A stretch of 64,000 bases of DNA, taken from NCBI GenBank assembly GCA_026018925.1, contig JAKSZU010000164.1, positions 248,001 to 312,000 on the forward strand. The letters run 5' to 3'. The notes under the pieces are model-generated. The model was not told the DNA's origin and ran no database searches. It saw nothing but the letters and a program-made list of their open reading frames with translations. This document shows positions 1 through 30,300 of the stretch, piece after piece. Source of the stretch: Tupaia tana (taxonomy: Eukaryota > Chordata > Mammalia > Scandentia > Tupaiidae). Position 1 is the stretch's first letter; each line of letters begins with the position of its first letter. The position numbers and the translations under genes are program-made.

Positions 1-2570
1 GTGTGGTAGGGGAGCCCCTCTGGCCTTCTATCGCTGTCTCTGTGTCTGTGAGGTCCTCTGTCTTTCTCTGCTCCTGTCTCCTCATTTTTTTTGGTAATTT
101 TTTCCTTTTTACGATTTTTTTAAAGGTAGAATTTCTCTCTGGCTCTCAGCTCCATCTTTTGTTTTGTTAATAAGTCCTTCTGCTCCTTTCTCCCAGGCAG
201 GAGAGTTGAGCCATTCTCTGAGAAGATTCCACATGGATACTGGGAAGAAGATATTTCAGGGCACAGGCGAAATGAAGATTTTCTACTCATAATTCAGCCT
301 CCAGCAAGCAAAGCTAGTGTGGTAGGGAGCCCCTCTGGCCTTCTATCCCTGTCTCTGTTTCTATGAGGTCTCTGTCTCTCTCTGCGCCTGTCTCTTCATT
401 TTTTTTTGTAATTTTTCCTTTTTACGATTATTTTAAAGGTAGAATGTCTCTCTGGCTCTCAGCTCCATCTTTTGTTTTGTTAATAAGCCCTTCTGCTCCT
501 TTCTCCCAGGCAGGAGAGTTGAGCCATTCTCTGAGAAGATTCCACATGGATACTGGGAACTAGATATTTCAGGGCACAGGCGAAATGCAGATTTTCTACT
601 CATAATTCAGCCTCCAGCAAGCAAAGCTAGTTGAGGTAGGGAGCCCCCTCTGGCCTTCTATCCCTGTCTCTGTGTCTCTGAGGTCTCTGTCTCTCTCTGC
701 TCTTCTCTCTTCATGTTTTTTTTGGTAATTTTTTCCTTTTTGCGCATATTTTTTAAAGGTAGAATTTCTCTCTGGCTCTCAGCTCCCTCTTTTGTTTTGT
801 TAATAAGCCCTTCTGCTCCTTTCTCCCCAGGCAGGAGAGTTGAGCCATTCTCTGAGAAGATTCCACATGAATACTGGGAACTAGATATTTCAGGTCACAG
901 GCGAAATGAAGATTTTCTACTCATAATTCAGCCTCCAGCAAGCAAAGCTAGTGAGGTAGGGAGCCCCTCTGGCCTTCTATCCCTGTCTCTGTGTCTCTGA
1001 GGTCTCTGTCTCTCTCTGCTCCTGTCTCTTCATTTTTTTTGGTAATTTTTTCCTTTTTACGATTTTTTTAAAGGTAGAATTTCTCTCTGGCTCTCAGCTC
1101 CATCTTTTGTTTTGTTAATAAGCCCTTCTGCTCCTTTCTTTCAGGCAGGAGAGTTGAGCCATTCTCTGAGAAGATTCCACATGGATACTGGGAACTAGAT
1201 ATTTCAGGGCACAGGCAAAATGAAGATTTTCTACTCATAATTCAGCCTCCAGCAAGCAAAGCTAGTGTGGTAGGGAGCCCCTCTGGCCTTCTATCCCTGT
1301 CTCTGTTTTCTATGAGGTCTCTGTCTCTCTCTGCTCCTGTCTCCTCATTTTTTTTTGGTTATTTTTCCTTCTTACGATTTTTTTAAAGGTAGAATTTCTC
1401 TCTGGCTCTCAGCTCCATCTTTTGTTTTGTTAATAAGCCCTTCGGCTCCTTTCTCCCAGGCAGGAGAGTTGACCCATTCTCTGAGAAGTTTGCACATGGA
1501 TACTGGGAACAAGATATTTCAGGGCACAGGCGAAATGAAGATTTTCTACTCATAATTCAGCCTCCAGCAAGCAAAGCTTGTGTGGTAGGGAGCCCCCTCT
1601 GGCCTTCTATCGCTGTCTCTGTGTCTCTGAGGGTCTCTGTCTCTCTCTGCTCCTATCTCCTCATTTTCTTTGGTAATTTTTCCTTTTTACGATTTTTTTT
1701 AAAGGTAGAATTTCTCTCTGGCTCTCAGCTCCATCTTTTTTTTTTGTTAATAAGCCCTTCTGCTCCTTTCTCCCAGGCAGGAGAGTTGAGCCATTCTCTG
1801 AGAAGTTTCCACATGGATACTGGGGAACTAGATATTTCAGGGCACAGGCGAAATGAACATTTTCTACTCATAATTCAGCCTCCAGCAAGCAAAGCTAGTG
1901 TGGTAGGGAGCCCCTCTGGCCTTCTCCTCGCTGTCTCTGTGTCTGTGAGGTCTCTGTCTCTCTCTGCTCCTGTCTCCCCTTTTTTTGGTAATTTTTCCTT
2001 TTTTACGATTTTTTTAAAGGTAGAATTTCTCTCTGGCTCTCAGCTCCATCTTTTTTTTTGTTAATAAGCCCTTCTGCTCCTTCTCTCCCAGGCAGGAGAG
2101 TTGAGCCATTCTCTGAGAAGTTTCCACATGGATACTGGGAACTAGATATTTCAGGGCACAGGCGAAATGAACATTTTCTACTCATAATTCAGCCTCCAGC
2201 AAGCAAAGCTAGTGTGGTAGGGGAGCCCCTCTGGCCTTCTATCGCTGTCTCTGAGTCTGTGAGTTCTCTGTCTCTCTCTGCTCCTGTCTCCTCATTTTTT
2301 TGGAAATTTTTCCTTTTTACGATTTTTTTTAAAGGTAGAATTTCTCTCTGGCTCTCAGCACCATCTTTTGTTTTGTTAATAAGTCCTTCTGCTCCTTTCT
2401 CCCCAGGCAGGAGAGTTGAGCCATTCTCTGAGAAGATTCCACATGGATACTGGGAATAAGATATTTCAGGGCACAGGCGAAATGAAGATTTTCTACTCAT
2501 AATTCAGCCTCCAGCAAGCAAAAGCTAGTGTGGTAGGGAGCCCCTCTCGCCTTCTATCCCTGTCTCTGTT
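1..2570. other. Zone of excess 1-bp insertions (possible unpolished sequence)
   Basis: Against the copies at 14.17-16.36 kb and 24.2-26.7 kb, this zone has about 20 single-base gains and almost no losses. Most lengthen homopolymers or doublets: gtaggggagcc at 8-16 and again at 2216-2224, aggtcctctg near 51, gagccccctctgg near 640 and 1592, ctccccagg near 825 and 2400, actggggaac near 1820, agcaaaagc near 2520, and extra T in several T runs. The offset to its duplicate drifts from 13815 at position 357 to 13794 at 2574, a surplus of 21 bp in 2.2 kb, whereas the offset stays near 13.79 kb from there to 13.5 kb. One-directional indels look more like residual long-read error than evolution. Confidence 0.6.
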
Positions 2571-3507
2571 TCTATGAGGTCTCTGTCTCTCTCTGCGCCT
2601 GTCTCTTCATATTTTTTTGTAATTTTTCCTTTTTACTATTTTTTTAAAGGTAGAATGTCTCTCTGGCTCTCAGCTCCATCTTTTGTTTTGTTAATAAGCC
2701 CTTCTGCTCCTTTCTCCCAGGCAGGAGAGTTGAGCCATTCTCTGAGAAGATTCCACATGGATACCGGGACCTAGATATTTCAGGGCACAGGCGAAATGAA
2801 GATTTTCTACTCATAATTCAGCCTCCAGCAAGCAAAGCTAGTGAGGTAGGGAGCCCCTCTGGCCTTCTATCCCTGTCTCTGTGTCTCTGAGGTCTCTGTC
2901 TCTCCCTGCTCTTCTGTCTTCATTTTTTTTTGGTAATTTTTCCTTTTTACGATTTTTTTAAAGGTAGAATTTCTCTCTGGCTCTCAGCGCCCTCTTTTGT
3001 TTTGTTAATAAGCCCTTCTGCTCCTTTCTCCCAGGCAGGAGAGTTGAGCCATTCTCTGAGAAGATTCCACATGGATACTGGGAACTAGATATTTCAGGTC
3101 ACAGGAGAAATGAAGATTTTCTACTCATAATTCAGCCTCCAGCAAGCAAAGCTAGTGTGGTAGGGAGCCCCTCTGGCCTTCTATCCCTGTCTCTGTGTCT
3201 CTGAGGTCTCTGTCTCTCTCTGCACCTGTCTCCTCATTTTTTTTGGAAATTTTTCCTTTTTACGATTTTTTTAAATGTAGAATTTCTCTCTGGCTCTCAG
3301 CTCCATCTTTTGTTTTGTTAATAAGCCCTTCTGCTCCTTTCTCCCAGGCAGGAGAGTTGAGCCATTCTCTGAGAAGATTCCACATGGATACTGGGAACTA
3401 GATATTTCAGGGCACAGGCGAAATGAAGATTTTCTACTCATAATTCAGCCTCCAGCAAGCAAAGCTAGTGTGGTAGGGGGCCCCTCTGGCCTTCTATCCC
3501 TGTCTCT
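1..3507 (+). repeat. HOR block A1 (types a-b-c-d-e-f-g-h-i, c'', j)
   Basis: Monomer starts are near 42 (a), 357 (b), 675 (c), 990 (d), 1310 (e), 1620 (f), 1940 (g), 2250 (h), 2568 (i), 2885 (c'') and 3195 (j). Diagnostic variants are: a, gtctgtgagg plus gtctttctc; b, gattattttaaagg plus gtagaatgtc; c, ctcttctctcttcatg; d, tttctttcagg; e, ttccttcttacg plus gttgaccc; f, ctcctatctcctc with tttctttgg; g, ctccccttttttt; h, gagttctctg with ggaaattt; i, tactattttttt; j, aaatgtagaa. It matches block A3 about 13.8 kb downstream. The first ~2.6 kb carries about 20 single-base insertions that A3 lacks. Confidence 0.85.
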
Positions 3508-6500
3508 GTGTTCTCTGAGGTCTCTGTCTCTCTCTGCTCCTGTCTCCTCATTTTTTTTTGGTAATTTTTCCTTTTTACGATTTTTTTAAAGGTAGAATTT
3601 CTCTCTGGCTCTCAGCTCCTTCTTTTGTTTTGTTAATAAGCCCTTCTGCTCCTTTCTCCCAGGCAGGAGAGTTGAGCCATTCTCTGAAAAGTTTCCACTT
3701 GGATACTGGGAACTAGATATTTCAGGGCACAGGGCGAAATGAAGATTTTCTACTCATAATTCAGCCTCCAGCAAGCAAAGCTAGTGTGGTAGGGAGCCCC
3801 TCTGGCCTTCTATCCCTGTCTCTGTTTCTATGAGGTCTCTGTCTCTCTCTGCGCCTGTCTCATCATTTTTTTTTTGTAATTTTTCCTTTTTACGATTTTT
3901 TTAAAGGTAGAATTTCTCTCTGGCTCTCAGCTCCATCTTTTGTTTTGTTAATAAGCCCTTCTGCTCCTTTCTCCCAGGCAGGAGAGTTGAGCCATTCTCT
4001 GAGAAGATTCCACATGGATACTGAGAACTAGATATTTCAGGGCACTGGAGAAAGGAAGAATTTTTACTCATAATTCAGCCTCCAGCAAGCAAAGGTAGTG
4101 TGGTAGGGAGACCCTCTGGCCTTCTGTCCCTTTCTCTGTGTCTCTGAGGTCTCTGTCTCTCTCTCTGCTCCTGTCTCCTCAATTTTTTTGGTAATTTTTC
4201 CTTTTTACGATTTTTTTAAAGGTAGAATTTCTCTCTGGCTCTCAGCTCCATCTTTTGTTTTGTTAATAAGCCCTTCTGCTCCTTTCTCCCAGGCAGTAGA
4301 GTTGAGCCATTCTCTGAGAAGATTCCACATGGATACCGGGAACTAGATATTTCAGGGCACAGGCGAAATGAAGATTTTCTACTCATATTTCAGCCTCCAG
4401 CAAGCAAAGCTAGTGTGGTAGGGAGCCCCTCTGGCCTTCTATCCCTGTCTCTGTTTCTCTGAGGTCTCTGTCTCTCCCTGCTCCTGTCTCCTCATTTTTT
4501 TGGTAATTTTTCATTTTTACGATTTTTTTAAAGGTAGAGTTTCTCTCTGGCTCTCAGCTCCATCTTTTGTTTTGTTAATAAGCCCTTCTGCTCTTTTCTC
4601 CAGGCAGGAGAGTTGAGCCATTCTCTGAGAAGATTCCACATGGATACTGGGAACTAGATATTTCAGGGCACAGGCGAAATGAAGATTTTCTACTAATAAT
4701 TCAGCCTCCAGCAAGCAAAGCTAGTGTGGTAGGTAGGCCCTCTGGCCTTATGTCCCTGTCTCTGTGTCTCTGAGGTCTCTGTCTCCCTCTGCTCCAGTCT
4801 CCTCATTTTTTTTGGAAATTTTTCCTTTTTACGATTTTTTTAAAGGTAGAATTTCTCTCTGGCTCTCAGCTCCATCTTTTGTTTTGTCAATAAGCCCTTC
4901 TGCTCCTTTCTCCCAGGCAGGAGAGTTGAGCCATTCTCTGAGAAGTTTCCACATGGATACTGGGAACTAGATATTTCAGGGCACAGGCGAAATGAAGATT
5001 TTCTACTCCTAATTCAGCCTCCAGCAAGCAAAGCTAGTGTGGTAGGGAGCCCCTCTGGCCTTCTAACCCTGTCTATGTGTCTCTGAGGTCTCTGTTTCTC
5101 TCTGCTCCTGTCTCCTCATTTTTTTAGGTAATTTTTCCTTTTTACGATTTTTTTTAAAGGTTGAATTTTCTCTGGCTCTCAGCTCCATCTTTGTTTTGTT
5201 AATAAGCCCTTCTGCTCCTTTCTCCCAGGAAGGAGAGTTGAGCCATTCTCTGAGAAGATTCCACATGGATACTGGGAACTAGATATTTCAGGGCACTGGA
5301 GAAATGAAAATTTTCTACTCATAAATCAGCGTCCAGCAAGCAAAGCTATTGTGGTAGGGAGCCCCTCTGGCCTTTTGTCCCTTTCTCTGTGTCTCTGAGG
5401 TCTCTGTCTGTCTCTGCTCCTGTCTCCTCAATTTTTTTGTTAATTTTTCCTTTTTACGAATTTTTTAAAGGTAGAATTTCTCTCTGGCTCTCAGCTCCAT
5501 CTTTTGTTTTGTTAATAAACCCTTCTGCTCCTTTCTCCCAGGCAGTAGAGTTGAGCCATTCTCTGAGAAGTTTCCACATGGATACTGGGAACAAGATATT
5601 TCAGGGCACAGGCGAAATGAAGATTTTCTACTCATAATTCAGCCTCTAGCAAGCAAAGCTAGGGTGGTAGGGAGCCCCTCTGGCCTTTTATTCCTGTCTC
5701 TGTTTCTCTGAGGTCTCTGTCTCTCTCTGCTCCTCTCTCCTCATTTTTTTGGTAATTTTTCCTTTTTTTACGATTTTTTTTTAAAGGTAGAATTTTCTCT
5801 GGCTCTCAGCTCCATCTTTTGTTTTGTTAATAAGCCCTTCTGATCCTTTCTCCCAGGCAGGAGAGTTGAGCCATTCTCTGAGAAGATTCCACATGGATAC
5901 TGGGAACTAGATATTTCAGGGAACAGGCGAAATGAAGATTTTTCTACTCATAATTCAGCCCCCAGCAAGCAAAGCTAGTGTGGTGGGGAGCCCCTCTGGC
6001 CTTCTATCCCTGTCTCTGTGTTTCTGAGGTCTCTGTCTCTCTCTGCTCCTGTCTCCTCATTTTTTTTATAATTTTTCATTTTTACAATTTTTTTAAAGGT
6101 AGAATTTCTCTCTGGCTCTCAGCTCCATCTTTTGTTTTGTTAATAAGCCCTTCTGCTCCTTTCTCCCAGGCAGGAGAGTTGAGCCATTCTCTGAGAAGTT
6201 TCCACATGGATACTGGGAACTAGATATTTCAGGGCACAGGCGAAATGAAGATTTTCTACTCATAATTCAGCCTCCAGCAAGCAAAGCTAGTATGGAAGGG
6301 AGCCCCTCTGGCCTTCTATCCCTGTCTCTGTGTCTCTGAGGTCTCTGTCTCTCTCTGCTCCTGTCTCCTCATTTTTTTTTGTTAATTTTTCCATTTTTAT
6401 GATTTTTTTTTAAAGGTACAATTTTCTCTGGCTCTCAGCTCCATTTTTTGTTTTGTTAATAAGCCCTTCTGCTCCTTTCTCCCCAGGCAGGAGAGTTGAG

Positions 6501-9500
6501 CCATTCTCTGAGAAGATTCCACATGGATACTGGGAACTAGATATTTCAGGGCACAGGCGAAATGAAAATTTTCTACTCATAATTCAGCCTCCAGCAAGCA
6601 AAGCGAGTGTGGTAGGGAGCCCCTCTGGCCTTCTATCCCTGTCTCTGTGTCTCTGAGGTCTCTGTATCTCTCTGCTCCTGTCTCCTCATATTTTTTGGTA
6701 ATTTTTCCTTTTTACGATTTTTTTAAAGGTAGAATTTCTCTCTGGCTCTCAGCTCCATCTTTTGTTTTGTTAATAAGCCCTTCTGATCCTTTCTCCCAGG
6801 CAGGAGAGTTGAGCCATTCTCTGAGAAGATTCCACATGGATACTGGGAAATAGATATTTCAGGGAACAGGCGAAATGAAGATTTTCTACTCATAATTAAG
6901 CCTCCAGCAAGCAAAGCTAGTATGGAAGGGAGCCCCTCTGGCCTTCTATCCCTGTCTCTGTGTCTCTGAGGTCTCTGCCTCTCTCTGCTCCTGTCTCCTC
7001 ATTTTTATTTTGGTAATTTTTCCTTTTTTATGATTTTTTTAAAGGTAAATTTCTCTCTGGCACTCAGCTCCATCTTTTGTTTTGTTAATAAGCCCTTCTG
7101 CTCCTTTCTCCCAGGCAGGAGAGTTGAGCCATTCTCTGAGAAGATTCCACATGGATACTGGGAACTAGATATTTCAGGGCACAGGCGAAATGAAGATTTT
7201 CTACTCATAATTCAGCCTCCAGCAAGCAAAGGTAGTGTGGTAGGGGGCCCCTCTGGCCTTCTATCCCTGTCTCTGTGTCTCTGAGGTCTCTGTCTCTCTC
7301 TGCTCCTGTCTCCAAATTTTTTTTGGTAATTTTCCTTTTTACGATTTTTTTAAAGGTAGAATTTCTCTCTGGCTCTCAGCTCCATCTTTTGTTTTGTTAA
7401 TAAGCCCTTCTGCTCCTTTCTCCCAGGCAGGAGAGTTGAGCCATTCTCTGAAAAGTTTCCACATGGATACTAGGAACTAGATATTTCAGGGCACAGGCGA
7501 AATGAAGATTTTCTACTCATAATTCAGCCTCCAGCAAGCAAAGGTAGTGTGGTAGGGAGCCCCTCTGGACTTATATCCCTGTCTCTGTGTCTCTGAAGTC
7601 TCTGTTTCTCTCTGCTCCTGTCTCCTCATTTATATTTTGGTAATTTTTCTTTTTCCGATTTTTTTAAAGGTACAATTTCTCTCTGGCTCTCAGCTCCATT
7701 TTTTGTTTTGTTAATAAGCCCTTCTGCTCCTTTCTCCCAGGCAGGAGAGTTGAGCCATTCTCTGAGAAGATTCCACATGGATACTGGGAACTAGATATTT
7801 CAGGGCACAGGCTAAATGAAGATTTCCTACTCATAATTCAGCCTCCAGCAAGCAAAGCTAGTGTGGTAGGGAGCCCCTCTGGCCTTCTATCCCTGTCTCT
7901 GTGTCTCTGAGGTCTCTGTATCTCTCTGCTCCTGTCTCCTCATATTTTTTTGGTAATTTTTCTTTTTACGATTTTTTTAAACGTAGAATTTCTCTCTGGC
8001 TCTCAGCTCCATCTTTTGTTTTGTTAATAACCCTTCTGCTCCTTTCTCCCAGGCAGGAGAGTTGAGCCATTCTCTGAGAAGATTCCACATGGATACTGGG
8101 AAATAGATATTACAGGGCACAGGCGAAATGAAGATTTTCTACTCATAATTCAGCCTCCAGCAAGCAAAGCTAGTGTGGTAGGGAGCCCCTCTGGCCTTCT
8201 ATCCCTGTCTCTGTGTCTCTGAAGTCTCTGCCTCTCTCTGATCCAGTCTCCTCATAATTTTTTTTGTAATTTTTCCTTTTTAAGATTTTTTTAAAGGTAG
8301 AATTTCTCTCTGGCTCTCAGCTCCATCTTTTGTTTTGTTAATAAGCCCTTCTGCTCCTTTCTCCCATGCAGGAGAGTTGAGCCATTCTCTGAGAAGATTC
8401 CACATGGATACTGGGAACTAGATATTTCAGGGCACAGGCGAAATGAAGATTTTCTACTCATAATTCAGCCTCCAGCAAGCAAAGGTAGTGTGGTAGGGAG
8501 CCCCTCTGGCCTTCTATCCCTGTCTCTGTGTCTCTGAGGTCTCTGTCTCTCTCTGCTCCTGTCTCCAAATATTTTTTTGGTAATTTTTCCATTTTACGAT
8601 TTTTTTAAAGGTAGAATTTCTCTCTGGCTCTCAGCTCCATCTTTTGTTTTCTTAATAAGCCCTTCTGCTCCTTTCTCCCAGGCAGGAGAGTTGAGCCATT
8701 CTCTGAGAAGATTCCACATGGATACTGGGAACTAGATATTTCAGGGCACAGGCGAAATGAAGATTTTCTACTCATAATTCAGCCTCCAGCAAGCAAAGCT
8801 ACTGTGGTAGGGAGCCCCTCTGGCTTTCTATCCCTGTCTCTGTGTCTCTGAGGTCTCTGTATCTCTCTGCTCCTCTCTCCTCATTTTGTTTTGGTAATTT
8901 TTCCTTTTTACGGTTTTTTTAAAGGTTGCATTTCTCTCTGGCTCTCAGCTCCATCTTTTGTTTTGTTAATAAGCCCTTCTACTCCTTTCTCCCATGCAGG
9001 AGAGTTGAGCCATTCTCTGAGAAGATTCCACATGGATACTGGGAACTAGATATTTCAGGGCACAGGCGAAATGAAGATTTTCTACTCATAATTCAGCCTC
9101 CAGCAAGCAAAGCTAGTGTGGTAGGGAGCCCCTCTGGCCTTCTATCCCTGTCTCTGTGTCTCTGAGTTCTCTGTCTCTCTCTGCTCCTGTCTCCTCATTT
9201 TATTTTTTAATTTTTCTTTTTTACGGTATTTTTTAAAGGTAGAATTTCCCTCTGGCTCTCAGCTCCATCTTTTGTTTTGTTAATAAGCCCTTCTGCTCCT
9301 TTCTCCCAGGCAGGAGAGTTGATCCATCCTCTGAGAAGTTTCCACATGGATACTGGGAACTAGATATTTCAGGGCACAGGCGAAATGAAGATTTTCTACT
9401 CATAATTCAGCCTCCACCAAGCAAAGCTAGTGTGGTAGGGAGCCCGTCTGGCCTTCTATCCTTGTCTCTGTGTCTCTGAGGTCTCTGTCTCTCTCTGCTC

Positions 9501-10409
9501 CTGTCTCCTCATATATTTTGGGTAATTTTTCCTTTTTACGATTTTTTTAAAGGTAGAATTTCTCTCTGGCTCTCTCCTCCATCTTTTGTTTTGTTAATAA
9601 GCCCTTCTGCTCCTTTCTCCCAGGCAAGAGAGTTGAGCCATTCTCTGAGAAGATTCCACATGGATACTGGGAACTAGATATTTCAGGGCACAGGCGAAAT
9701 GAAGATTTTCTACTCATAATTCAGCCTCCAGCAAGCAAAGCTAGTGTAGTAGGGAGCCCCTCTGGCTTTCTATCCCTGTCTCTGTGTCTCTGAGGTCTCT
9801 GTATCTCTCTGCTCCTCTCTCCTCATTTGTTTTGGTAATTTTTTCCTTTTTTACGATTTTTTTAAAGGTAGAATTTCTCTCTGGCTCTCAGCTCCATCTT
9901 TTGTTTTGTTAATAAGCCCTTCTGCTCCTTTCTCCCAGGCAGGAGAGTTGATCCATTCTCTGAGAAGTTTCCACATGGATACTGGGAACTAGATATTTCA
10001 GGGCACAGGCGAATGAAGATTTTCTACTCATAATTCAGCCTCCAGCAAGCAAAGCTAGTGTGGTAGGGAGCCCCTCTGGCCTTCTATACCTGTCTATCTG
10101 TCTCTGAGGTCTCTGTCTCTCTCTGCTCCTGTCTCCTCATTTTTTTGGTAATTTTTTCTTTTTACGATTTTTAAAAGGTAGAATTTCTCTCTGGCTCTCA
10201 GCTACATCTTTTGTTTTGTTAATAAGCCCTTCTGCTCCTTTCTCCCCAGGCAGGAGAGTTGAGCCATTCTCTGAGAAGATTCCACATGGATACTGGGAAC
10301 TAGATATTTCAGGGCACAGGCGAAATGAACATTTTCTACTCATAATTCAGCCTCCAGCAAGCAAAGCTAGTGTGGTAGGGAGCCCCTCTGGCCTTCTATC
10401 GCTGTCTCT
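3508..10409 (+). repeat. Block B1, 22 divergent monomers
   Basis: Between A1 and A2 lie 22 monomers of more mixed type. Useful markers are: ctgtctgtctctg with gttaataaaccc (5389-5530); tctgatccttt with agggaacagg (near 5850 and 6785); ccaaattttt and ccaaatattt (near 7310 and 8560); catttatattttgg (7625); aaacgtagaa (7978); gatccagtctcc (8240); aaaggttgcattt (8922); a tttattttttaat form (9197); catatattttggg (9510); and tacctgtctatctg (10087). The same markers recur in the same order in block B2 about 13.79 kb downstream, so B1 and B2 are paralogous copies of one 6.9-kb segment. Confidence 0.85.
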
Positions 10410-13400: not shown

Positions 13401-13543
13401 TTCTCTGAGAAGATTCCACATGGATACTGGGAACTAGATATTTCAGGGCACAGGCGAAATGAAGATTTTCTACTCATAATTCAGCCTCCAGCAAGCAAAG
13501 CTAGTGTGGTAGGGAGCCCCTCTGGCCTTCTATCCCTGTCTCT
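10410..13543 (+). repeat. HOR block A2 (10 monomers, a to j)
   Basis: Starts are a 10410, b 10724, c about 11037, d 11351, e about 11664, f 11976, g about 12289, h about 12602, i about 12915 and j 13229. The d copy carries ctttctttgagg in place of the usual cccagg, and the a copy carries cagtctccagc followed by tatccccgtc. Both are shared with A4, 13.79 kb downstream. Some single-base insertions (tctcccccggc near 12438, gcgccctgtc near 12943, gaattttctctc near 13316) are absent from A4 and may be errors. Confidence 0.88.
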
Positions 13544-17299: not shown

Positions 17300-20200
17300 G
17301 TGTCTCTGAGGTCTCTGTCTCTCTCTGCTCCTGTCTCCTCATTTTTTTTTGGTTATTTTTCCTTTTTACGATTTTTTTAAAGGTAGAATTTCTCTCTGGC
17401 TCTCAGCTCCATCTTTTGTTTTGTTAATAAGTCCTTCTGCTCCTTTCTCCCAGGCAGGAGAGTTGAGCCATTCTCTGAGAAGATTCCACATGGATACTGG
17501 GAACAAGATATTTCAGGGCACAGGCGAAATGAAGATTTTCTACTCATAATTCAGCCTCCAGCAAGCAAAGCTAGTGTGGTAGGGAGCCCCTCTGGCCTTC
17601 TATCCCTGTCTCTGTTTCTATGAGGTCTCTGTCTCTCTCTGCGCCTGTCTCTTCATTTTTTTTTTGTAATTTTTCCTTTTTACGATTTTTTTAAAGGTAG
17701 AATGTCTCTCTGGCTCTCAGCTCCATCTTTTGTTTTGTTAATAAGCCCTTCTGCTCCTTTCTCCCAGGCAGTAGAGTTGAGCCATTCTCTGAGAAGATTC
17801 CACATGGATACTGGGAACTAGATATTTCAGGGCACAGGCGAAAGGAAGATTTTCTACTCATAATTCAGCCTCCAGCAAGCAAAGGTAGTGTGGTAGGGAG
17901 CACATCTGGCCTTCTGTCCCTTTCTCTGTGTCTCTGAGGTCTCTGTCTCTCTCTGCTCCTGTCTCCTCATATTTTTTGGTAATTTTTTCTTTTTTCCGAT
18001 TTCTTTTAAAGGTAGAATTTCTCTCTGGCTCTCAGCTCCATCTTTTGTTTTGTTAATAAGCCCTTCTGCTCCTTTCTCCCAGGCAGGAGAGTTGAGCCAT
18101 TCTCTGAGAAGATTCCACATGGATACCGGGACCTAGATATTTCAGGGCACAGGCGAAATGAAGATTTTCTACTCATAATTCAGCCTCCAGCAAGCAAAGC
18201 TAGTGTGGTAGGGAGCCCCTCTGGCCTTCTATCCCTGTCTCTGTGTCTCTGAGGTCTCTGTCTCTCCCTGCTCCTGTCTCATTTATTTTTTTGGTAATTT
18301 TTCATTTTTACGATTTTTTTAAAGGTAGAATTTCTCTCTGGCTCTCAGCGCCATCTTTTGTTTTGTTAATAAGCCCTTCTGCTCCTTTCTCCAGGCAGGA
18401 GAGTTGAGCCATTCTCTGAGAAGATTCCACATGGATACTGGGAACTAGATATTTCAGGGCACAGGCGAAATGAAGATTTTCTACTCATAATTCAGCCTCC
18501 AGCAAGCAAAGCTAGTGTGGTAGGTAGGCCCTCTGGCCTTCTGTTCCTGTCTCTGTGTCTCTGAGGTCTCTGTCTCCCTCTGCTCCTGTCTCCTCATTTT
18601 TTTTGGAAATTTTTCCTTTTTACGACTTTTTTTAAAGGTAGAATTTCTCTCTGGCTCTCAGCTCCATCTTTTGTTTTGTTAATAAGCCCTTCTGCTCCTT
18701 TCTCCCAGGCAGGAGAGTTGAGCCATTCTCTGAGAAGATTCCACATGGATACTGGGAACTAGATATTTCAGGGCACAGGCGAAATGAAGATTTTCTACTC
18801 CTAATTCAGCCTACAGCAAGCAAAGCTAGTGTGGTAGGGAGCCCCTCTGGCCTTCTATCCCTGTCTATGTGTCTCTGAGGTCTCTGTTTCTCTCTGCACC
18901 TGTCTTCTCATTTTTTTAGGTAATTTTTCCTTTTTACGATTTTTTTTAAAGGTAGAATTTCTCTCTGGCTCTCAGCTCCATCTTTTGTTTTGTTAATAAG
19001 CCCTTCTGCTCCTTTCTCCCAGGCAGGAGAGTTGAGCCATTCTCTGAGAAGATTCCACATGGATACTGAGAACTAGATATTTCAGGACACTGGAGAAATG
19101 AAGAATTTCTACTCATAATTCAGCGTCCAGCAAGCAAAGCTAGTGTGGTAGGGAGACCCTCTGGCCTTCTGTCCCTTTCTCTGTGTCTCTGAGGTCTCTG
19201 TCTGTCTCTGCTCCTGTCTCCTCAATTTTTTTGTTAATTTTTCCTTTTTACGAATTTTTTAAAGGTAGAATTTCTCTCTGGCTCTCAGCTCCATCTTTTG
19301 TTTTGTTAATAAACCCTTCTGCTCCTTTCTCCCAGGCAGTAGAGTTGAGCCATTCTCTGAGAAGATTCCACATGGATACTGGGAACTAGTTATTTCAGGG
19401 CACAGGCGAAATGAAGATTTTCTACTCATAATTCAGCCTCTAGCAAGCAAAGCGAGTGTGGTAGGGAGCCCCTCTGGCCTTCTATCCCTGTCTCTGTTTC
19501 TCTGAGGTCTCTGTCTCTCTCTGCTCCTGTCTCCTCATTTTTTTGGTAATTTTTCCTTTTTTACGATTTTTTTAAAGGTAGAGTTTCTCTCTGGCTCTCA
19601 GCTCCATCTTTTGTTTTGTTAATAAGCCCTTCTGATCCTTTCTCCCAGGCAGGAGAGTTGAGCCATTCTCTGAGAAGATTCCACATGGATACTGGGAACT
19701 AGATATTTCAGGGAACAGGCGAAATGAAGATTTTCTACTAATAATTCAGCCTCCAGCAAGCAAACCTAGTGTGGTAGGGAGCCCCTCCGGCCTTCTATCC
19801 CTGTGTCTGTGTTTCTGAGGTCTCTGTCTCTCTCTGCTCCTGTCTCCTCATTTTTTTTGGTAATTTTTCCTTTTTACGATTTTTTTAAAGGTAGAATTTC
19901 TCTCTGGCTCTCAGCTCCATCTTTTGTTTTGTCAATAAGCCCTTCTGCTCCTTTCTCCCAGGCAGGAGAGTTGAGCCATTCTCTGAGAAGTTTCCACATG
20001 GATACTGGGAACTAGATATTTCAGGGCACAGGCGAAATGAAGATTTTCTACTCATAATTCAGCCTCCAGCAAGCATAGCTAGTGTGGTAGGGAGCCCCTC
20101 TGGCCTTCTATCCCTGTCTCTGTGTCTCTGAGGTCTCTGTCTCTCTCCGCTCCTGTCTCCTCATTTTTTTTTGGTAATTTTTCCATTTTACGATTTTTTT

Positions 20201-23200
20201 TTTAAAGGTAGAATATTTCTCTGGCTCTCAGCTCCATCTTTGTTTTGTTAATAAGCCCTTCTGCTCCTTTCTCCCAGGCAGGAGAGTTGCGCCATTCTCT
20301 GAGAAGGTTCCACATGGATACTGGGAACTAGATATTTCAGGGCACAGGCGAAATGAAAATTTTCTACTCATAATTCAGCCTCTAGCAAGCAAAGCGAGTG
20401 TGGTATGGAGCCCCTCTGGCCTTCTATCCCTGTCTCTGTTTCTCTGAGGTCTCTGTCTCTCTCTGCTCCTGTCTCCTCATTTTTTTGGTAATTTTTCCTT
20501 TTTACGATTTTTTTAAAGGTAGAGTTTCTCTCTGGCTCTCAGCTCCATCTTTTGTTTTGTTAATAAGCCCTTCTGATCCTTTCTCCCAGGCAGGAGAGTT
20601 GAGCCATTCTCTGAGAAGATTCCACATGGATACTGGGAACTAGATATTTCAGGGAACAGGCGAAATGAAGATTTTCTACTAATAATTCAGCCTCCAGCAA
20701 GCAAAGCTAGTATGGAAGGGAGCCCCTCTGGCCTTCTATCCCTGTCTCTGTGTCTCTGAGGTCTCTGTCTCTCTCTGCTCCTGTCTCCTCATTTATATTT
20801 TGGTAATTTTTCCTTTTTATGATTTTTTTAAAGGTAACATTTCTCTCTGGCACTCAGCTCCATCTTTTGTTTTGTTAATAAGCCCTTCTGCTCCTTTCTC
20901 CCAGGCAGGAGAGTTGAGCCATTCTCTGAGAAGATTCCACATTGGATACTGGGAACTAGATATTTCAGGGCACAGGCGAAATGAAGATTTTCTACTCATA
21001 ATTCAGCCTCCAGCAAGCAAAGCTAGTGTGGTAGGGGGCCCCTCTGGCCTTCTATCCCTGTCTCTGTGTCTCTGAGGTCTCTGTCTCTCTCTGCTCCTGT
21101 CTCCTCATTTTTTTTGGTAATTGTTCCTTTTTACGATTTTTTTAAAGGTAGAATTTCTCTCTGGCTCTCAGCTCCATCTTTTGTTTTGTTAATAAGCCCT
21201 TCTGCTCCTTTCTCCCAGGCAGGAGAGTTGAGCCATTCTCTGAAAAGTTTCCACTTGGATACTGGGAACTAGATATTTCAGGGCACAGGCGAAATGAAGA
21301 TTTTCTACTCATAATTCAGCCTCCAGCAAGCAAAGCTAGTGTGGTAGGGAGCCCCTCTGGACTTATATCCCTGTCTCTGTGTCTCTGAAGTCTCTGTCTC
21401 TCTCTGCTCCTGTCTCCTCATTTATATTTTGTTAATTTTTCCTTTTTATGATTTTTTTAAAGGTACAATTTCTCTCTGGCTCTCAGCTCCATTTTTTGTT
21501 TTGTTAATAAGCCCTTCTGCTCCTTTCTCCCAGGCAGGAGAGTTGAGCCATTCTCTGAGAAGATTCCACATGGATACTGGGAACTAGATATTTCAGGGCA
21601 CATGCGAAATGAAGATTTTCTACTCATAATTCAGCCTCCAGCAAGCAAAGCTAGTGTGGTAGGGAGCTCCTCTGGCCTTCTATCTCTGTCTCTGTGTCTC
21701 TGAGGTCTCTGTATCTCTCTGCTCCTGTCTCCTCATATTTTTTTGGTAATTTTTCCTTTTTACGATTTTTTTAAACGTAGAATTTCTCTCTGGCTCTCAG
21801 CTCCATCTTTTGTTTTGTTAATAAGCCCTTCTGCTCCTTTCTCCCAGGCAGGAGAGTTGAGCCATTCTCTGAGAAGATTCCACATGGATACTGGGAAATA
21901 GATATTACAGGGCACAGGCGAAATGAAGATTTTCTACTCATAATTAAGCCTCCAGCAAGCAAAGCTAGTGTGGTAGGGAGCCCCTCTGGCCTTCTATCCC
22001 TGTCTCTGTGTCTCTGAAGTCTCTGCCTCTCGCTGATCCAGTCTCCTCATAATTTTTTTTGTAATTTTTCCTTTTCAAGATTTTTTTAAAGGTAGAATTT
22101 CTCTCTGGCTCTCAGCTCCATCTTTTGTTTTGTTAATAAGCCCTTCTGCTCCTTTCTCCCATGCAGGAGAGTTGAGCCATTCTCTGAGAAGATTCCACAT
22201 GGATACTGGGAACTAGATATTTCAGGGCACAGGCGAAATGAAGATTTTCTACTCATAATTCAGCCTCCAGCAAGCAAAGGTAGTGTGGTAGGGAGCCCCT
22301 CTGGCCTTCTATCCCTGTCTCTGTGTCTCTGAGGTCTCTGTCTCTCTCTGCTCCTGTCTCCAAATATTTTTTTGGTAATTTATCCTTTTTACGGTTTTTT
22401 TTAAGGTAGAATTTCTCTCTGGCTCTCAGCTCCATCTTTTGTTTTCTTAATAAGCCCTTCTGCTCCTTTCTCCCAGGCAGGAGAGTTGAGCCATTCTCTG
22501 AGAAGATTCCACATGGATACTGGGAACTAGATATTTCAGGGCACAGGCGAAATGAAGATTTTCTACTCATAATTCAGCCTCCAGCAAGCAAAGCTACTGT
22601 GGTAGGGAGCCCCTCTGGCTTTCTATCCCTGTCTCTGTGTCTCTGAGGTCTCTGTATCTCTCTGCTCCTCTCTCCTCATTTTGTTTTGGTAATTTTTCCT
22701 TTTTACGATTTTTTTAAAGGTTGCATTTCTCTCTGGCTCTCAGCTCCATCTTTTGTTTTGTTAATAAGCCCTTCTACTCCTTTCTCCCATGCAGGAGAGT
22801 TGAGCCATTCTCTGAGAAGATTCCACATGGATACTGGGAACTAGATATTTCAGGGCACAGGCGAAATGAAGATTTTCTACTCATAATTCAGCCTCCAGCA
22901 AGCAAAGCTAGTGTGGTAGGGAGCCCCTCTGGCCTTCTATCCCTGTCTCTGTGTCTCTGAGTTCTCTGTCTCTCTCTGCTCCTGTCTCCTCATTTTATTT
23001 TTTAATTTTTCTTTTTTACGGTATTTTTAAAGGTAGAATTTCCCTCTGGCTCTCAGCTCCATCTTTTGTTTTGTTAATAAGCCCTTCTGCTCCTTTCTCC
23101 CAGGCAGGAGAGTTGATCCATCCTCTGAGAAGTTTCCACATGGATACTGGGAACTAGATATTTCAGGGCACAGGCGAAATGAAGATTTTCTACTCATAAT

Positions 23201-24202
23201 TCAGCCTCCACCAAGCAAAGCTAGTGTGGTAGGGAGCCCGTCTGGCCTTCTATCCTTGTCTCTGTGTCTCTGAGGTCTCTGTCTCTCTCTGCTCCTGTCT
23301 CCTCATATATTTTGGGTAATTTTTCCTTTTTACGATTTTTTTAAAGGTAGAATTTCTCTCTGGCTCTCTCCTCCATCTTTTGTTTTGTTAATAAGCCCTT
23401 CTGCTCCTTTCTCCCAGGCAAGAGAGTTGAGCCATTCTCTGAGAAGATTCCACATGGATACTGGGAACTAGATATTTCAGGGCACAGGCGAAATGAAGAT
23501 TTTCTACTCATAATTCAGCCTCCAGCAAGCAAAGCTAGTGTAGTAGGGAGCCCCTCTGGCTTTCTATCCCTGTCTCTGTGTCTCTGAGGTCTCTGTATCT
23601 CTCTGCTCCTCTCTCCTCATTTGTTTTGGTAATTTTTCCTTTTTACGATTTTTTTTAAAGGTAGAATTTCTCTCTGGCTCTCAGCTCCATCTTTTGTTTT
23701 GTTAATAAGCCCTTCTGCTCCTTTCTCCCAGGCAGGAGAGTTGATCCATTCTCTGAGAAGTTTCCACATGGATACTGGGAACTAGATATTTCAGGGCACA
23801 GGCGAAATGAAGATTTTCTACTCATAATTCAGCCTCCAGCAAGCAAAGCTAGTGTGGTAGGGAGCCCCTCTGGCCTTCTATACCTGTCTATCTGTCTCTG
23901 AGGTCTCTGTCTCTCTCTGCTCCTGTCTCCTCATTTTTTTGGTAATTTTTTCTTTTTACGATTTTTAAAAGGTAGAATTTCTCTCTGGCTCTCAGCTACA
24001 TCTTTTGTTTTGTTAATAAGCCCTTCTGCTCCTTTCTCCCAGGCAGGAGAGTTGAGCCATTCTCTGAGAAGATTCCACATGGATACTGGGAACTAGATAT
24101 TTCAGGGCACAGGCGAAATGAACATTTTCTACTCATAATTCAGCCTCCAGCAAGCAAAGCTAGTGTGGTAGGGAGCCCCTCTGGCCTTCTATCGCTGTCT
24201 CT
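17300..24202 (+). repeat. Block B2, 22 monomers, duplicate of B1
   Basis: This is collinear with B1 at an offset of 13788-13795. For example, the gttaataaaccc monomer starts at 5389 and 19183; the gatccagtctcc, ccaaatattt and ggttgcattt monomers follow in the same order; and the tttattttttaat form is at 9197 and about 22992. The monomer count is equal (22 in both). The copies agree closely from about 21.3 kb to the end. They differ more at 17.3-17.6 kb and at 19.8-21.1 kb, where individual monomers appear to have been replaced. Confidence 0.87.
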
Positions 24203-27200
24203 GTGTCTGTGAGGTCTCTGTCTTTCTCTGCTCCTGTCTCCTCATTTTTTTTGGTAATTTTTCCTTTTTACGATTTTTTTAAAGGTAGAATTTCTCTCTG
24301 GCTCTCAGCTCCATCTTTTGTTTTGTTAATAAGTCCTTCTGCTCCTTTCTCCCAGGCAGGAGAGTTGAGCCATTCTCTGAGAAGATTCCACATGGATACT
24401 GGGAACAAGATATTTCAGGGCACAGGCGAAATGAAGATTTTCTACTCATAATTCAGTCTCCAGCAAGCAAAGCTAGTGTGGTAGGGAGCCCCTCTGGCCT
24501 TCTATCCCCGTCTCTGTTTCTATGAGGTCTCTGTCTCTCTCTGCGCCTGTCTCTTCATTTTTTTTTGTAATTTTTCCTTTTTACGATTATTTTAAAGGTA
24601 GAATGTCTCTCTGGCTCTCAGCTCCATCTTTTGTTTTGTTAATAAGCCCTTCTGCTCCTTTCTCCCAGGCAGGAGAGTTGAGCCATTCTCTGAGAAGATT
24701 CCACATGGATACTGGGAACTAGATATTTCAGGGCACAGGCGAAATGAAGATTTTCTACTCATAATTCAGCCTCCAGCAAGCAAAGCTAGTGAGGTAGGGA
24801 GCCCCTCTGGCCTTCTATCCCTGTCTCTGTGTCTCTGAGGTCTCTGTCTCTCTCTGCTCTTCTCTCTTCATGTTTTTTTGGTAATTTTTCCTTTTTACGA
24901 TTTTTTTAAAGGTAGAATTTCTCTCTGGCTCTCAGCTCCCTCTTTTGTTTTGTTAATAAGCCCTTCTGCTCCTTTCTCCCAGGCAGGAGAGTTGAGCCAT
25001 TCTCTGAGAAGATTCCACATGAATACTGGGAACTAGATATTTCAGGTCACAGGCGAAATGAAGATTTTCTACTCATAATTCAGCCTCCAGCAAGCAAAGC
25101 TAGTGAGGTAGGGAGCCCCTCTGGCCTTCTATCCCTGTCTCTGTGTCTCTGAGGTCTCTGTCTCTCTCTGCTCCTGTCTCTTCATTTTTTTTGGTAATTT
25201 TTCCTTTTTACGATTTTTTTAAAGGTAGAATTTCTCTCTGGCTCTCAGCTCCATCTTTTGTTTTGTTAATAAGCCCTTCTGCTCCTTTCTTTGAGGCAGG
25301 AGAGTTGAGCCATTCTCTGAGAAGGTTCCACATGGATACTGGGAACTAGATATTTCAGGGCACAGGCGAAATGAAGATTTTCTACTCATAATTCAGCCTC
25401 CAGCAAGCAAAGCTAGTGTGGTAGGGAGCCCCTCTGGCCTTCTATCCCTGTCTCTGTTTCTATGAGGTCTCTGTCTCTCTCTGCTCCTGTCTCCTCATTT
25501 TTTTGGTTATTTTTCCTTCTTACGATTTTTTTAAAGGTAGAATTTCTCTCTGGCTCTCAGCTCCATCTTTTGTTTTGTTAATAAGCCCTTCGGCTCCTTT
25601 CTCCCAGGCAGGAGAGTTGACCCATTCTCTGAGAAGTTTGCACATGGATACTGGGAACAAGATATTTCAGGGCACAGGCGAAATGAAGATTTTCTACTCA
25701 TAATTCAGCCTCCAGCAAGCAAAGCTTGTGTGGTAGGGAGCCCCTCTGGCCTTCTATCGCTGTCTCTGTGTCTCTGAGGTCTCTGTCTCTCTCTGCTCCT
25801 ATCTCCTCATTTTCTTTGGTAATTTTTCCTTTTTACGATTTTTTTAAAGGTAGAATTTCTCTCTGGCTCTCAGCTCCATCTTTTTTTTTGTTAATAAGCC
25901 CTTCTGCTCCTTTCTCCCAGGCAGGAGAGTTGAGCCATTCTCTGAGAAGTTTCCACATGGATACTGGGAACTAGATATTTCAGGGCACAGGCGAAATGAA
26001 CATTTTCTACTCATAATTCAGCCTCCAGCAAGCAAAGCTAGTGTGGTAGGGAGCCCCTCTGGCCTTCTCTCGCTGTCTCTGTGTCTGTGAGGTCTCTGTC
26101 TCTCTCTGCTCCTGTCTCCCCTTTTTTTGGTAATTTTTCCTTTTTACGATTTTTTTAAAGGTAGAATTTCTCTCTGGCTCTCAGCTCCATCTTTTTTTTT
26201 TGTTAATAAGCCCTTCTGCTCCTTTCTCCCCGGCAGGAGAGTTGAGCCATTCTCTGAGAAGTTTCCACATGGATACTGGGAACTAGATATTTCAGGGCAC
26301 AGGCGAAATGAACATTTTCTACTCATAATTCAGCCTCCAGCAAGCAAAGCTAGTGTGGTAGGGAGCCCCTCTGGCCTTCTATCGCTGTCTCTGAGTCTGT
26401 GAGTTCTCTGTCTCTCTCTGCTCCTGTCTCCTCATTTTTTTGGAAATTTTTCCTTTTTACGATTTTTTTAAAGGTAGAATTTCTCTCTGGCTCTCAGCAC
26501 CATCTTTTGTTTTGTTAATAAGTCCTTCTGCTCCTTTCTCCCAGGCAGGAGAGTTGAGCCATTCTCTGAGAAGATTCCACATGGATACTGGGAACAAGAT
26601 ATTTCAGGGCACAGGCGAAATGAAGATTTTCTACTCATAATTCAGCCTCCAGCAAGCAAAGCTAGTGTGGTAGGGAGCCCCTCGCGCCTTCTATCCCTGT
26701 CTCTGTTTCTATGAGGTCTCTTTCTCTCTCTGCGCCTGTCTCTTCATATTTTTTTGTAATTTTTCCTTTTTACTATTTTTTTAAAGGTAGAATGTCTCTC
26801 TGGCTCTCAGCTCCATCTTTTGTTTTGTTAATAAGCCCTTCTGCTCCTTTCTCCCAGGCAGGAGAGTTGAGCCATTCTCTGAGAAGATTCCACATGGATA
26901 CTGGGAACTAGATATTTGAGGGCACAGGCGAAATGAAGATTTTCTACTCATAATTCAGCCTCCAGCAAGCAAAGCTAGTGAGGTAGGGAGCCCCTCTGGC
27001 CTTCTATCCCTGTCTCTGTGTCTCTGAGGTCTCTGTCTCTCTCTGCACCTGTCTCTTCATTTTTTTTGGTAATTTTTTCCTTTTTACGATTTTTTTAAAT
27101 GTAGAATTTCTCTCTGGCTCTCAGCTCCATCTTTTGTTTTGTTAATAAGCCCTTCTGCTCCTTTCTCCCAGGCAGGAGAGTTGAGCCATTCTCTGAGAAG

Positions 27201-27331
27201 ATTCCACATGGATACTGGGAACTAGATATTTCAGGGCACAGGCGAAATGAAGATTTTCTACTCATAATTCAGCCTCCAGCAAGCAAAGCTAGTGTGGTAG
27301 GGAGCCCCTCTGGCCTTCTATCCCTGTCTCT
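24203..27331 (+). repeat. HOR block A4 (10 monomers, a to j)
   Basis: Starts are a 24203, b 24516, c about 24829, d 25143, e about 25456, f 25768, g about 26081, h about 26393, i 26705 and j 27018. It duplicates A2 at offset 13792 and A5 at offset 3130, with very few differences visible in either comparison. The d monomer has ctttctttgagg as in A2 and A5. This is the cleanest copy of the 10-monomer unit. Confidence 0.9.
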
Positions 27332-30300
27332 GTGTCTCTGAGGTCTCTGTCTCTCTCTGCTCCTGTCTCCTCATTTTTTTTTGGTTATTTTTCCTTTTTA
27401 CGATTTTTTTAAAGGTAGAATTTCTCTCTGGCTCTCAGCTCCATCTTTTGTTTTGTTAATAAGTCCTTCTGCTCCTTTCTCCCAGGCAGGAGAGTTGAGC
27501 CATTCTCTGAGAAGATTCCACATGGATACTGGGAACAAGATATTTCAGGGCACAGGCGAAATGAAGATTTTCTACTCATAATTCAGCCTCCAGCAAGCAA
27601 AGCTAGTGTGGTAGGGAGCCCCTCTGGCCTTCTATCCCTGTCTCTGTTTCTATGAGGTCTCTGTCTCTCTCTGCGCCTGTCTCTTCATTTTTTTTTGTAA
27701 TTTTTCCTTTTTACGATTTTTTTAAAGGTAGAATGTCTCTCTGGCTCTCAGCTCCATCTTTTGTTTTGGTAATAAGCCCTTCTGCTCCTTTCTCCCAGGC
27801 AGGAGAGTTGAGCCATTCTCTGAGAAGATTCCACATGGATACTGGGAACTAGATATTTCAGGGCACAGGCGAAATGAAGATTTTCTACTCATAATTCAGC
27901 CTCCAGCAAGCAAAGCTAGTGAGGTAGGGAGCCCCTCTGGCCTTCTATCCCTGTCTCTGTGTCTCTGAGGTCTCTGTCTCTCTCTGCTCTTCTCTCTTCA
28001 TGTTTTTTTGGTAATTTTTCCTTTTTACGATTTTTTTAAAGGTAGAATTTCTCTCTGGCTCTCAGCTCCCTCTTTTGTTTTGTTAATAAGCCCTTCTGCT
28101 CCTTTCTCCCAGGCAGGAGAGTTGAGCCATTCTCTGAGAAGATTCCACATGAATACTGGGAACTAGATATTTCAGGTCACAGGCGAAATGAAGATTTTCT
28201 ACTCATAATTCAGCCTCCAGCAAGCAAAGCTAGTGAGGTAGGGAGCCCCTCTGGCCTTCTATCCCTGTCTCTGTGTCTCTGAGGTCTCTGTCTCTCTCTG
28301 CTCCTGTCTCTTCATTTTTTTTGGTAATTTTTCCTTTTTACGATTTTTTTAAAGGTAGAATTTCTCTCTGGCTCTCAGCTCCATCTTTTGTTTTGTTAAT
28401 AAGCCCTTCTGCTCCTTTCTTTGAGGCAGGAGAGTTGAGCCATTCTCTGAGAAGGTTCCACATGGATACTGGGAACTAGATATTTCAGGGCACAGGCGAA
28501 ATGAAGATTTTCTACTCATAATTCAGCCTCCAGCAAGCAAAGCTAGTGTGGTAGGGAGCCCCTCTGGCCTTCTATCCCTGTCTCTGTTTCTATGAGGTCT
28601 CTGTCTCTCTCTGCTCCTGTCTCCTCATTTTTTTGGTTATTTTTCCTTCTTACGATTTTTTTAAAGGTAGAATTTCTCTCTGGCTCTCAGCTCCATCTTT
28701 TGTTTTGTTAATAAGCCCTTCGGCTCCTTTCTCCCAGGCAGGAGAGTTGACCCATTCTCTGAGAAGTTTGCACATGGATACTGGGAACAAGATATTTCAG
28801 GGCACAGGCGAAATGAAGATTTTCTACTCATAATTCAGCCTCCAGCAAGCAAAGCTTGTGTGGTAGGGAGCCCCTCTGGCCTTCTATCGCTGTCTCTGTG
28901 TCTCTGAGGTCTCTGTCTCTCTCTGCTCCTATCTCCTCATTTTCTTTGGTAATTTTTCCTTTTTACGATTTTTTTAAAGGTAGAATTTCTCTCTGGCTCT
29001 CAGCTCCATCTTTTTTTTTGTTAATAAGCCCTTCTGCTCCTTTCTCCCAGGCAGGAGAGTTGAGCCATTCTCTGAGAAGTTTCCACATGGATACTGGGAA
29101 CTAGATATTTCAGGGCACAGGCGAAATGAACATTTTCTACTCATAATTCAGCCTCCAGCAAGCAAAGCTAGTGTGGTAGGGAGCCCCTCTGGCCTTCTCT
29201 CGCTGTCTCTGTGTCTGTGAGGTCTCTGTCTCTCTCTGCTCCTGTCTCCCCTTTTTTTGGTAATTTTTCCTTTTTACGATTTTTTTAAAGGTAGAATTTC
29301 TCTCTGGCTCTCAGCTCCATCTTTTTTTTTGTTAATAAGCCCTTCTGCTCCTTTCTCCCCGGCAGGAGAGTTGAGCCATTCTCTGAGAAGTTTCCACATG
29401 GATACTGGGAACTAGATATTTCAGGGCACAGGCGAAATGAACATTTTCTACTCATAATTCAGCCTCCAGCAAGCAAAGCTAGTGTGGTAGGGAGCCCCTC
29501 TGGCCTTCTATCGCTGTCTCTGAGTCTGTGAGTTCTCTGTCTCTCTCTGCTCCTGTCTCCTCATTTTTTTGGAAATTTTTCCTTTTTACGATTTTTTTAA
29601 AGGTAGAATTTCTCTCTGGCTCTCAGCACCATCTTTTGTTTTGTTAATAAGTCCTTCTGCTCCTTTCTCCCAGGCAGGAGAGTTGAGCCATTCTCTGAGA
29701 AGATTCCACATGGATACTGGGAACAAGATATTTCAGGGCACAGGCGAAATGAAGATTTTCTACTCATAATTCAGCCTCCAGCAAGCAAAGCTAGTGTGGT
29801 AGGGAGCCCCTCGCGCCTTCTATCCCTGTCTCTGTTTCTATGAGGTCTCTTTCTCTCTCTGCGCCTGTCTCTTCATATTTTTTTGTAATTTTTCCTTTTT
29901 ACTATTTTTTTAAAGGTAGAATGTCTCTCTGGCTCTCAGCTCCATCTTTTGTTTTGTTAATAAGCCCTTCTGCTCCTTTCTCCCAGGCAGGAGAGTTGAG
30001 CCATTCTCTGAGAAGATTCCACATGGATACTGGGAACTAGATATTTGAGGGCACAGGCGAAATGAAGATTTTCTACTCATAATTCAGCCTCCAGCAAGCA
30101 AAGCTAGTGAGGTAGGGAGCCCCTCTGGCCTTCTATCCCTGTCTCTGTGTCTCTGAGGTCTCTGTCTCTCTCTGCACCTGTCTCTTCATTTTTTTTGGTA
30201 ATTTTTCCTTTTTACGATTTTTTTAAATGTAGAATTTCTCTCTGGCTCTCAGCTCCATCTTTTGTTTTGTTAATAAGCCCTTCTGCTCCTTTCTCCCAGG

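What the first reader, a model, noticed from the sequence alone, without database searches (positions are those of the whole stretch)
240..27960. Tandem duplication of a 13.8-kb, 44-monomer segment
A1+B1+A2 and A3+B2+A4 are collinear at an offset that stays within about 13788-13795 over more than 11 kb, including the irregular B block whose monomer order would not recur by chance. The few differences suggest a recent event. It sits one level above the 10-mer HOR.
Basis: seen in the sequence. Interest (0 to 1): 0.7.

Follow-up and report, generated by a model that had tools for sequence, protein, structure and literature searches.

The report
Repeated 44-monomer block in satellite DNA
A 13.8-kb block of 44 satellite repeats does occur back to back in this assembly, but as part of a longer run of such blocks whose parts were mixed by later exchange, which is ordinary behaviour for this kind of DNA rather than one clean recent duplication.

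Summary
The window is wholly a 313-bp satellite. Monomers at 198-14,011 match those at 14,012-27,799 in order, 44 monomers apart, far beyond shuffled order. The interpretation needs three corrections. (1) The match continues left of the window to a 100-N gap, so about 2.3 units of [25-monomer A block + 19-monomer B block] are visible, and a third, incomplete B-type block (B0) lies beyond the gap. (2) It is not uniformly recent. Identity is 99.75% for A2/A4 but 96.8% in the left part of B. There B2 is closer to B0 (D about 0.01) than to B1 (about 0.033), and 25 derived variants are shared by B0+B2 against 7 by B1+B2. B2 is a mosaic that switches near 20,279. (3) Inside the units the A repeat is an 11-mer, not a 10-mer. 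Best explanation: out-of-register exchange at the boundary of two higher-order-repeat domains, then more exchange or conversion. Part of copy 1 lies in a low-quality contig end. No raw reads were available, so an assembly error is not excluded. Interest modest.

The parts
198..14011 (+). Copy 1 of the 44-monomer stretch (A1 + B1 + A2); the left end is set by the window, not by biology
14012..27799 (+). Copy 2 of the 44-monomer stretch (A3 + B2 + A4), head-to-tail with copy 1 and with no Ns between
   Evidence: the window holds only A, C, G, T
198..3978 (+). A1: right-hand part of a 25-monomer A block that begins at -3,899, outside the window
   Evidence: 99.17% to copy 2 with 28 indel events
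3979..9939 (+). B1: 19-monomer irregular block; the nearest relatives of its left 8 monomers in the 260 kb are 0.016-0.032 away
9940..17768 (+). A2+A3: 25-monomer A block, an 11-mer higher-order repeat
   Evidence: offset 11 mean D 0.0160 against 0.0393 at offset 10
17769..23732 (+). B2: 19-monomer block; its left 8 monomers are like the upstream block B0, the rest like B1
17142..18083 (+). A-to-B junction of copy 2 at a monomer boundary (17,769): in the two monomers before it 29 of 30 (other A parent: 28 of 29) diagnostic sites are A-type, in the monomer after it 13 of 13 (15 of 16) are B-type
20279..20590 (+). Monomer in which B2 turns from mainly B0-like to mainly B1-like
23733..27799 (+). 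A4: the A block after B2, 99.75% identical to A2
24670..30927 (+). 10-mer run: ten consecutive monomers (24,670-27,799) with zero substitutions to those ten further on (27,800-30,927)
   Evidence: 10 of 13 pairs at 0.000

Best explanation
The 13.8-kb unit is a piece of satellite array that straddled the boundary between two neighbouring higher-order-repeat (HOR) domains: an irregular family (monomer types o-p-Z-a-b-q-r, seen upstream) and an 11-mer family (s-B-C-E-H-O-F-P-N-K-D/E). Inferred mechanism: unequal sister-chromatid exchange or break-induced replication between an A-type and a Z-type monomer, in monomer register, joined the end of an A block to the start of a B block. That repeated [B 19 + A 25] in tandem and gave a period-44 run of at least 2.3 units. 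Later exchange or conversion, again out of register, replaced the left part of one B block and homogenised the A blocks, so different parts of the unit have different histories. Shown here: the collinearity, the extra partial unit, the third B-type block, the sharp in-register junction of copy 2, the conflicting histories of B left and right. Inferred: the exchange mechanism, the order of events, and that the assembly is right.
For: Offset-44 collinearity beyond 300 shuffles and best of 817 offsets for the B core. It continues to -4,217, at the gap. The third block B0 (-9,466 to the gap) aligns to B2 at offsets 85-86; the monomer just right of the gap is 0.006 from the last monomer of B2 and 0.010 from that of B1, next relative 0.029. 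Conflicting histories, derived meaning unlike the scaffold consensus: in the left 8 monomers shared B0+B2 25, B1+B2 7, B0+B1 1, all three 26; in 13 A monomers after the blocks B1+B2 16, B0+B2 0, B0+B1 2, all three 76. A-to-B junction of copy 2 sharp at a monomer boundary. Substitutions between copies are uneven: variance/mean 4.15, p 2e-18; B-left against A2, Fisher p 8e-24. Other local periods nearby: 26, 37, 15, 13, 16 and 11 monomers.
Against: The order across the 100-N gap is the scaffolder's, so B0's place is not proven. In the alignment B0 monomers 233, 234 and 236-239 are 0.038-0.061 from their B2 partners; two of them (238, 239) fit other B2 monomers better, and about 7 monomers seem to be missing, perhaps inside the gap (my reading). 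The three triples available at the right part of B0 (238-240) are not decisive: derived shared B1+B2 1, B0+B2 0, B0+B1 0, all three 12. In the genome search B0 (96%) stands little above the 95% family background for B1-left, and two partial matches also reach 96%. The A-to-B junction of copy 1 is blurred. Rare inserted bases are 2.0 per monomer next to the gap, so part of copy 1 is of poor sequence quality. A single exchange does not give the exact pattern of three blocks.
Confidence: 0.72

Rival explanations
1. One clean recent tandem duplication of the whole 13.8 kb; the differences are later point mutations.
For: Two adjacent copies of the same length; A2/A4 99.75% and the right four monomers of B 99.36% identical; B-right found at only two places at 99-100%.
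Against: Differences are strongly uneven, B-left is only 96.8% identical, B2-left shares 25 derived variants with B0 and 7 with B1, and the period-44 match continues outside the two copies. A later conversion of one B-left would be needed, which is the best explanation under another name.
Confidence: 0.1
2. Assembly artefact: two haplotypes, or two array positions, joined head-to-tail by the assembler.
For: Satellite scaffold with a 100-N gap 4.6 kb left of the window; rare insertions falling from the gap into copy 1, as at a thinly covered contig end; no reads to check.
Against: No Ns at the join of the copies (14,012), where rare insertions are 0.25-0.33 per monomer. Of 124 B1/B2 differences only 17 involve an allele carried by 3 or fewer of 828 monomers, so they are mainly known variants, not private errors. 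Local periods of similar kind occur elsewhere in the scaffold, although these rest on the same assembly.
Confidence: 0.13
3. Chance: the 44 offset is only a multiple of the 11-mer repeat (4 x 11).
For: 44 = 4 x 11; many A monomers match as well at offsets such as 33 and 54.
Against: The B core matches best at 44 of 817 offsets, and shuffles never reach the observed value.
Confidence: 0.02

Closest known systems
Cascading 'superHOR' of orangutan Y alpha satellite, 58-mer and 45-mer (PMC12428378; abstract and passages seen)
   Same: A very long unit of tens of monomers in which some monomer types recur inside the unit, arranged in rows of shorter repeats.
   Different: There alpha-satellite monomers (171 bp, recalled), dozens to hundreds of copies and 0.25% divergence for the 58-mer; here 313-bp non-alpha monomers, about 2.3 visible units and 1.2% divergence, uneven along the unit.
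Turnover of human centromeric alpha-satellite HOR arrays (PMC11062924; abstract and passages seen)
   Same: Gain and loss of HOR units, new units intermixed with old ones; that paper invokes unequal crossing over, saltatory amplification and conversion.
   Different: Different satellite and genome; here one scaffold and one locus, no population data and no CENP-A data.

Membership tests
Higher-order repeat (HOR) of a satellite | Units of several distinct monomers repeated in order, unit-to-unit distance well below monomer-to-monomer distance | tested here: met
   11-mer: 0.0156 and 0.0160 at offset 11 against 0.0476 and 0.0393 at offset 10; mean of all monomer pairs 0.0466. 44-mer: 0.0128.
Cascading superHOR | Unit of tens of monomers with monomer types recurring inside the unit | tested here: met
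   44 monomers; types C, E, H, F and N recur within each of the two full 25-monomer A blocks
Cascading superHOR | Array of many low-divergence canonical copies | tested here: not met
   About 2.3 units in view, 98.81% identity, uneven. A short, nascent or decaying case at most; not filed as a member.
Alpha satellite | 171-bp monomer (recalled) | tested here: not met
   313-bp monomer
Alpha satellite | CENP-B box in a subset of monomers (motif recalled) | tested here: not met
   0 matches with at most 1 mismatch in the window; 0 exact on either strand in 260 kb, 13 and 20 with up to 2 mismatches, no chance level computed for those
Functional centromere DNA | CENP-A occupancy | not testable with these tools
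   No chromatin data. Indirect only: satellite hits at 114.2 and 116.6 Mb of a 163.7-Mb contig.

The most novel reading that the evidence does not exclude
The boundary between two HOR domains is itself a favoured place for out-of-register exchange, so new very long units start there; this locus would be such a unit caught at two to three copies, with a recombinant B block recording the intermediate step.
Probability: 0.15. Interest if true: 0.5.

Novelty: new member of a known kind. Interest (0 to 1): 0.28.

Why it matters
Few-copy long units with readable junctions and a mosaic block are useful for working out the order of exchange events in satellite arrays, here in a 313-bp non-alpha satellite of which the listings of my paper searches showed no description (one search listed 15 of 1,716). 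The result also warns that 'recent duplication' cannot be read from the homogenised parts of a satellite alone.

Tried and rejected
Rejected: chance or plain multiple of the 11-mer; a purely sequencing-error origin of the B1/B2 differences (17 of 124 involve a rare allele); CENP-B box (motif recalled); the 96% match on C499 as another copy of the A repeat (for 12 of its 13 monomers the best hit is the consensus-like type A, the thirteenth ties; type A is 0.8% from the consensus against 2.5% for all monomers), so it is family background. Three first attempts at cutting monomers missed some or lost register and were replaced; only the place of the gap is taken.

Dropped rows: one interval of 542 bases that holds the N gap was left out of the 828 monomers. 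The history test used 8, 13 and 3 monomer triples, not all of B, because B0 is incomplete. Distances count substitutions only, on alignment columns filled in more than half of the monomers; indels are. Substitutions between the copies are 164 by pairwise alignment and 176 by the multiple alignment.

Literature: searches; listings and starts of abstracts seen. Opened by term search only: PMC4053949 (no '313' in its main text), PMC11062924, PMC12428378, PMC13103737 (its '313 bp' is the end of a genome-size number). The other papers were not opened. The library lacks most subscription journals, so absence there is weak.

Species: globin exons read as a mammal. The alpha and beta chains look to me like tree shrew (Tupaia), from memory; no call compared them with Tupaia, and the PDB search (best 60 of 248 shown) named few species. 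The name is a lead only.
Full report
Setting. The window is C269:248,001-312,000 of an unnamed 2.95-Gb genome in 1,198 contigs. It is wholly a 313-bp tandem satellite, 204.5 copies, 95% matches. I fetched C269 from 168,001 to its end at 427,904; all of it is the same satellite apart from a 100-N gap at C269:243,392-243,491, that is 4,608 bases left of the window start. I could not fetch C269:1-168,000. With a conserved word as anchor, 828 monomers were cut with lengths 303-321, aligned, and compared by substitutions. Two random monomers differ at 4.66% on average.

Observation. Among 31-mers present 2-6 times in the window the top distance class is 44 monomers. In order, 198-14,011 pairs with 14,012-27,799. 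Pairwise alignment gives 164 substitutions and 59 indel events, 98.81% identity without gaps. Shuffling the window's 203 monomers 300 times never gave a 44-monomer collinear stretch with mean distance below 0.0342; observed 0.0128. For ten B-core monomers alone, offset 44 ranks first of 817 offsets. Single monomers are weaker evidence: 20 of 25 A monomers and 9 of 19 B monomers of copy 1 have some other monomer at least as close as the +44 partner. The order makes the case.

Anatomy. By monomer types the scaffold here reads: an upstream irregular family with types o-p-Z-a-b-q-r; then A blocks made of an 11-mer (s-B-C-E-H-O-F-P-N-K-D/E), with B blocks between. A blocks of 25 monomers lie at -3,899 to 3,978 and 9,940 to 17,768; B blocks of 19 monomers at 3,979-9,939 (B1) and 17,769-23,732 (B2). 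25 + 19 = 44. Left of the gap, monomers from -9,466 on (B0) align with B2 at offsets 85-86. The first monomer right of the gap is 0.006 from the last monomer of B2 and 0.010 from that of B1, with the next relative at 0.029. So a third B block probably sits across the gap, but the order there is the scaffolder's. To the right the pattern gives way to a 10-mer: ten of 13 monomers from 23,733 on have zero substitutions to the monomer ten further on.

History. The two copies do not have one age. A2/A4 are 99.75% identical and the right four monomers of B 99.36%, but the left eight monomers of B only 96.80%, with 80 of the 164 substitutions. Per-monomer counts are overdispersed (variance/mean 4.15). 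In those left eight monomers B2 is 0.003-0.013 from B0 but 0.016-0.045 from B1. Derived variants (unlike the scaffold consensus): B0+B2 25, B1+B2 7, B0+B1 1, all three 26. From about monomer 318 (20,279) on, B2 follows B1. B2 is thus a mosaic, and the three blocks are related. Against a simple picture: B0 monomers 233, 234 and 236-239 do not fit their B2 partners (0.038-0.061), and the three triples usable at the right part of B0 decide nothing. In the genome search the best full-length places for B1-left are B1 itself, B2 at 97% and B0 at 96%, against 95% and less for others; two partial matches also reach 96%, so B0 stands out little there. For B-right they are B1 and B2 at 99-100%, then 96%. 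The tool scores only the best candidates, so these are lower bounds.

Junction. In copy 2 the change from A to B falls at a monomer boundary: 29 of 30 diagnostic sites in the two monomers before 17,769 are A-type (28 of 29 with another A parent), and 13 of 13 in the next are B-type (15 of 16). This is what homologous exchange in register leaves. Copy 1's junction is blurred, with mixed sites in monomers 263-268.

Quality of the sequence. Rare inserted bases are at 2.00 per monomer in the 12 monomers right of the gap, 1.58 in the next 12, 0.67 in the next, 0.08 from about 7.1 kb, 0.25-0.33 from about 10.9 to 22 kb, and 0.00 after that; most bins elsewhere are at or below 0.17, a few at 0.33-0.58. 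The left end looks like a thinly covered contig end and would explain the drift of the offset from 13,814 to about 13,790 at the left side of copy 1. It does not explain the B1/B2 substitutions: of 124, only 17 involve an allele carried by 3 or fewer of 828 monomers. The join of the two copies at 14,012 has no Ns.

Mechanism. The simplest account is out-of-register exchange, in monomer register, at the boundary between two HOR domains, followed by further exchange or conversion. [quoted passage not shown] the sequence cannot tell them apart. The same scaffold has other local periods: 26 monomers from 39.7 kb and 37 from 58.4 kb of window coordinates, 13 and 16 elsewhere. Over 40-monomer bins the 44-mer gives the lowest mean distance (0.0152), so it is the strongest of a common kind.

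Comparison. Long units with internally recurring monomer types are known as cascading superHORs in orangutan alpha satellite (PMC12428378, abstract and passages). This locus works like a beginning of such a thing, but lacks the many uniform copies, so I do not file it as a member. It is not alpha satellite: 313-bp monomer and no CENP-B box. Hits at 114.2 and 116.6 Mb of the 163.7-Mb contig C1197, with two sampled 10-kb stretches near 114.2 Mb fully satellite, fit a centromeric or pericentromeric place, which is not shown.

Verdict. Observation confirmed; interpretation partly right. A real-looking but ordinary example of satellite array turnover, better described as a short period-44 array with a recombinant block than as one recent duplication.

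Noticed in passing
window, 40 monomers from 39,700: Local period of 26 monomers (mean distance 0.029), another long local tandem repeat of the same kind; a distance of 8,105 bp, 26 monomers, has 653 exact 31-mer pairs in the window.
   Followed up: no
window, 40 monomers from 58,407 (runs beyond the window): Local period of 37 monomers, mean distance 0.026.
   Followed up: no
4,608 bases left of the window, and window 1-7,000: 100-N scaffold gap and a falling gradient of rare single-base insertions running from it into the window, as at a thinly covered contig end.
   Followed up: yes
window 44,085-58,103 (7 monomers) and C269 further right (8 monomers): 15 of 828 monomers are 303-304 bp, about 9 bp short, in two clusters; the missing bases were not looked at.
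   Followed up: no
C1197:114.2-116.6 Mb (L030, L031 and hits): The same satellite lies inside a 163.7-Mb contig; two 10-kb stretches sampled near 114.2 Mb are satellite throughout.
   Followed up: partly
L038-L043: Globin exons of this genome; the alpha and beta chains remind me of tree shrew (Tupaia), from memory only.
   Followed up: partly
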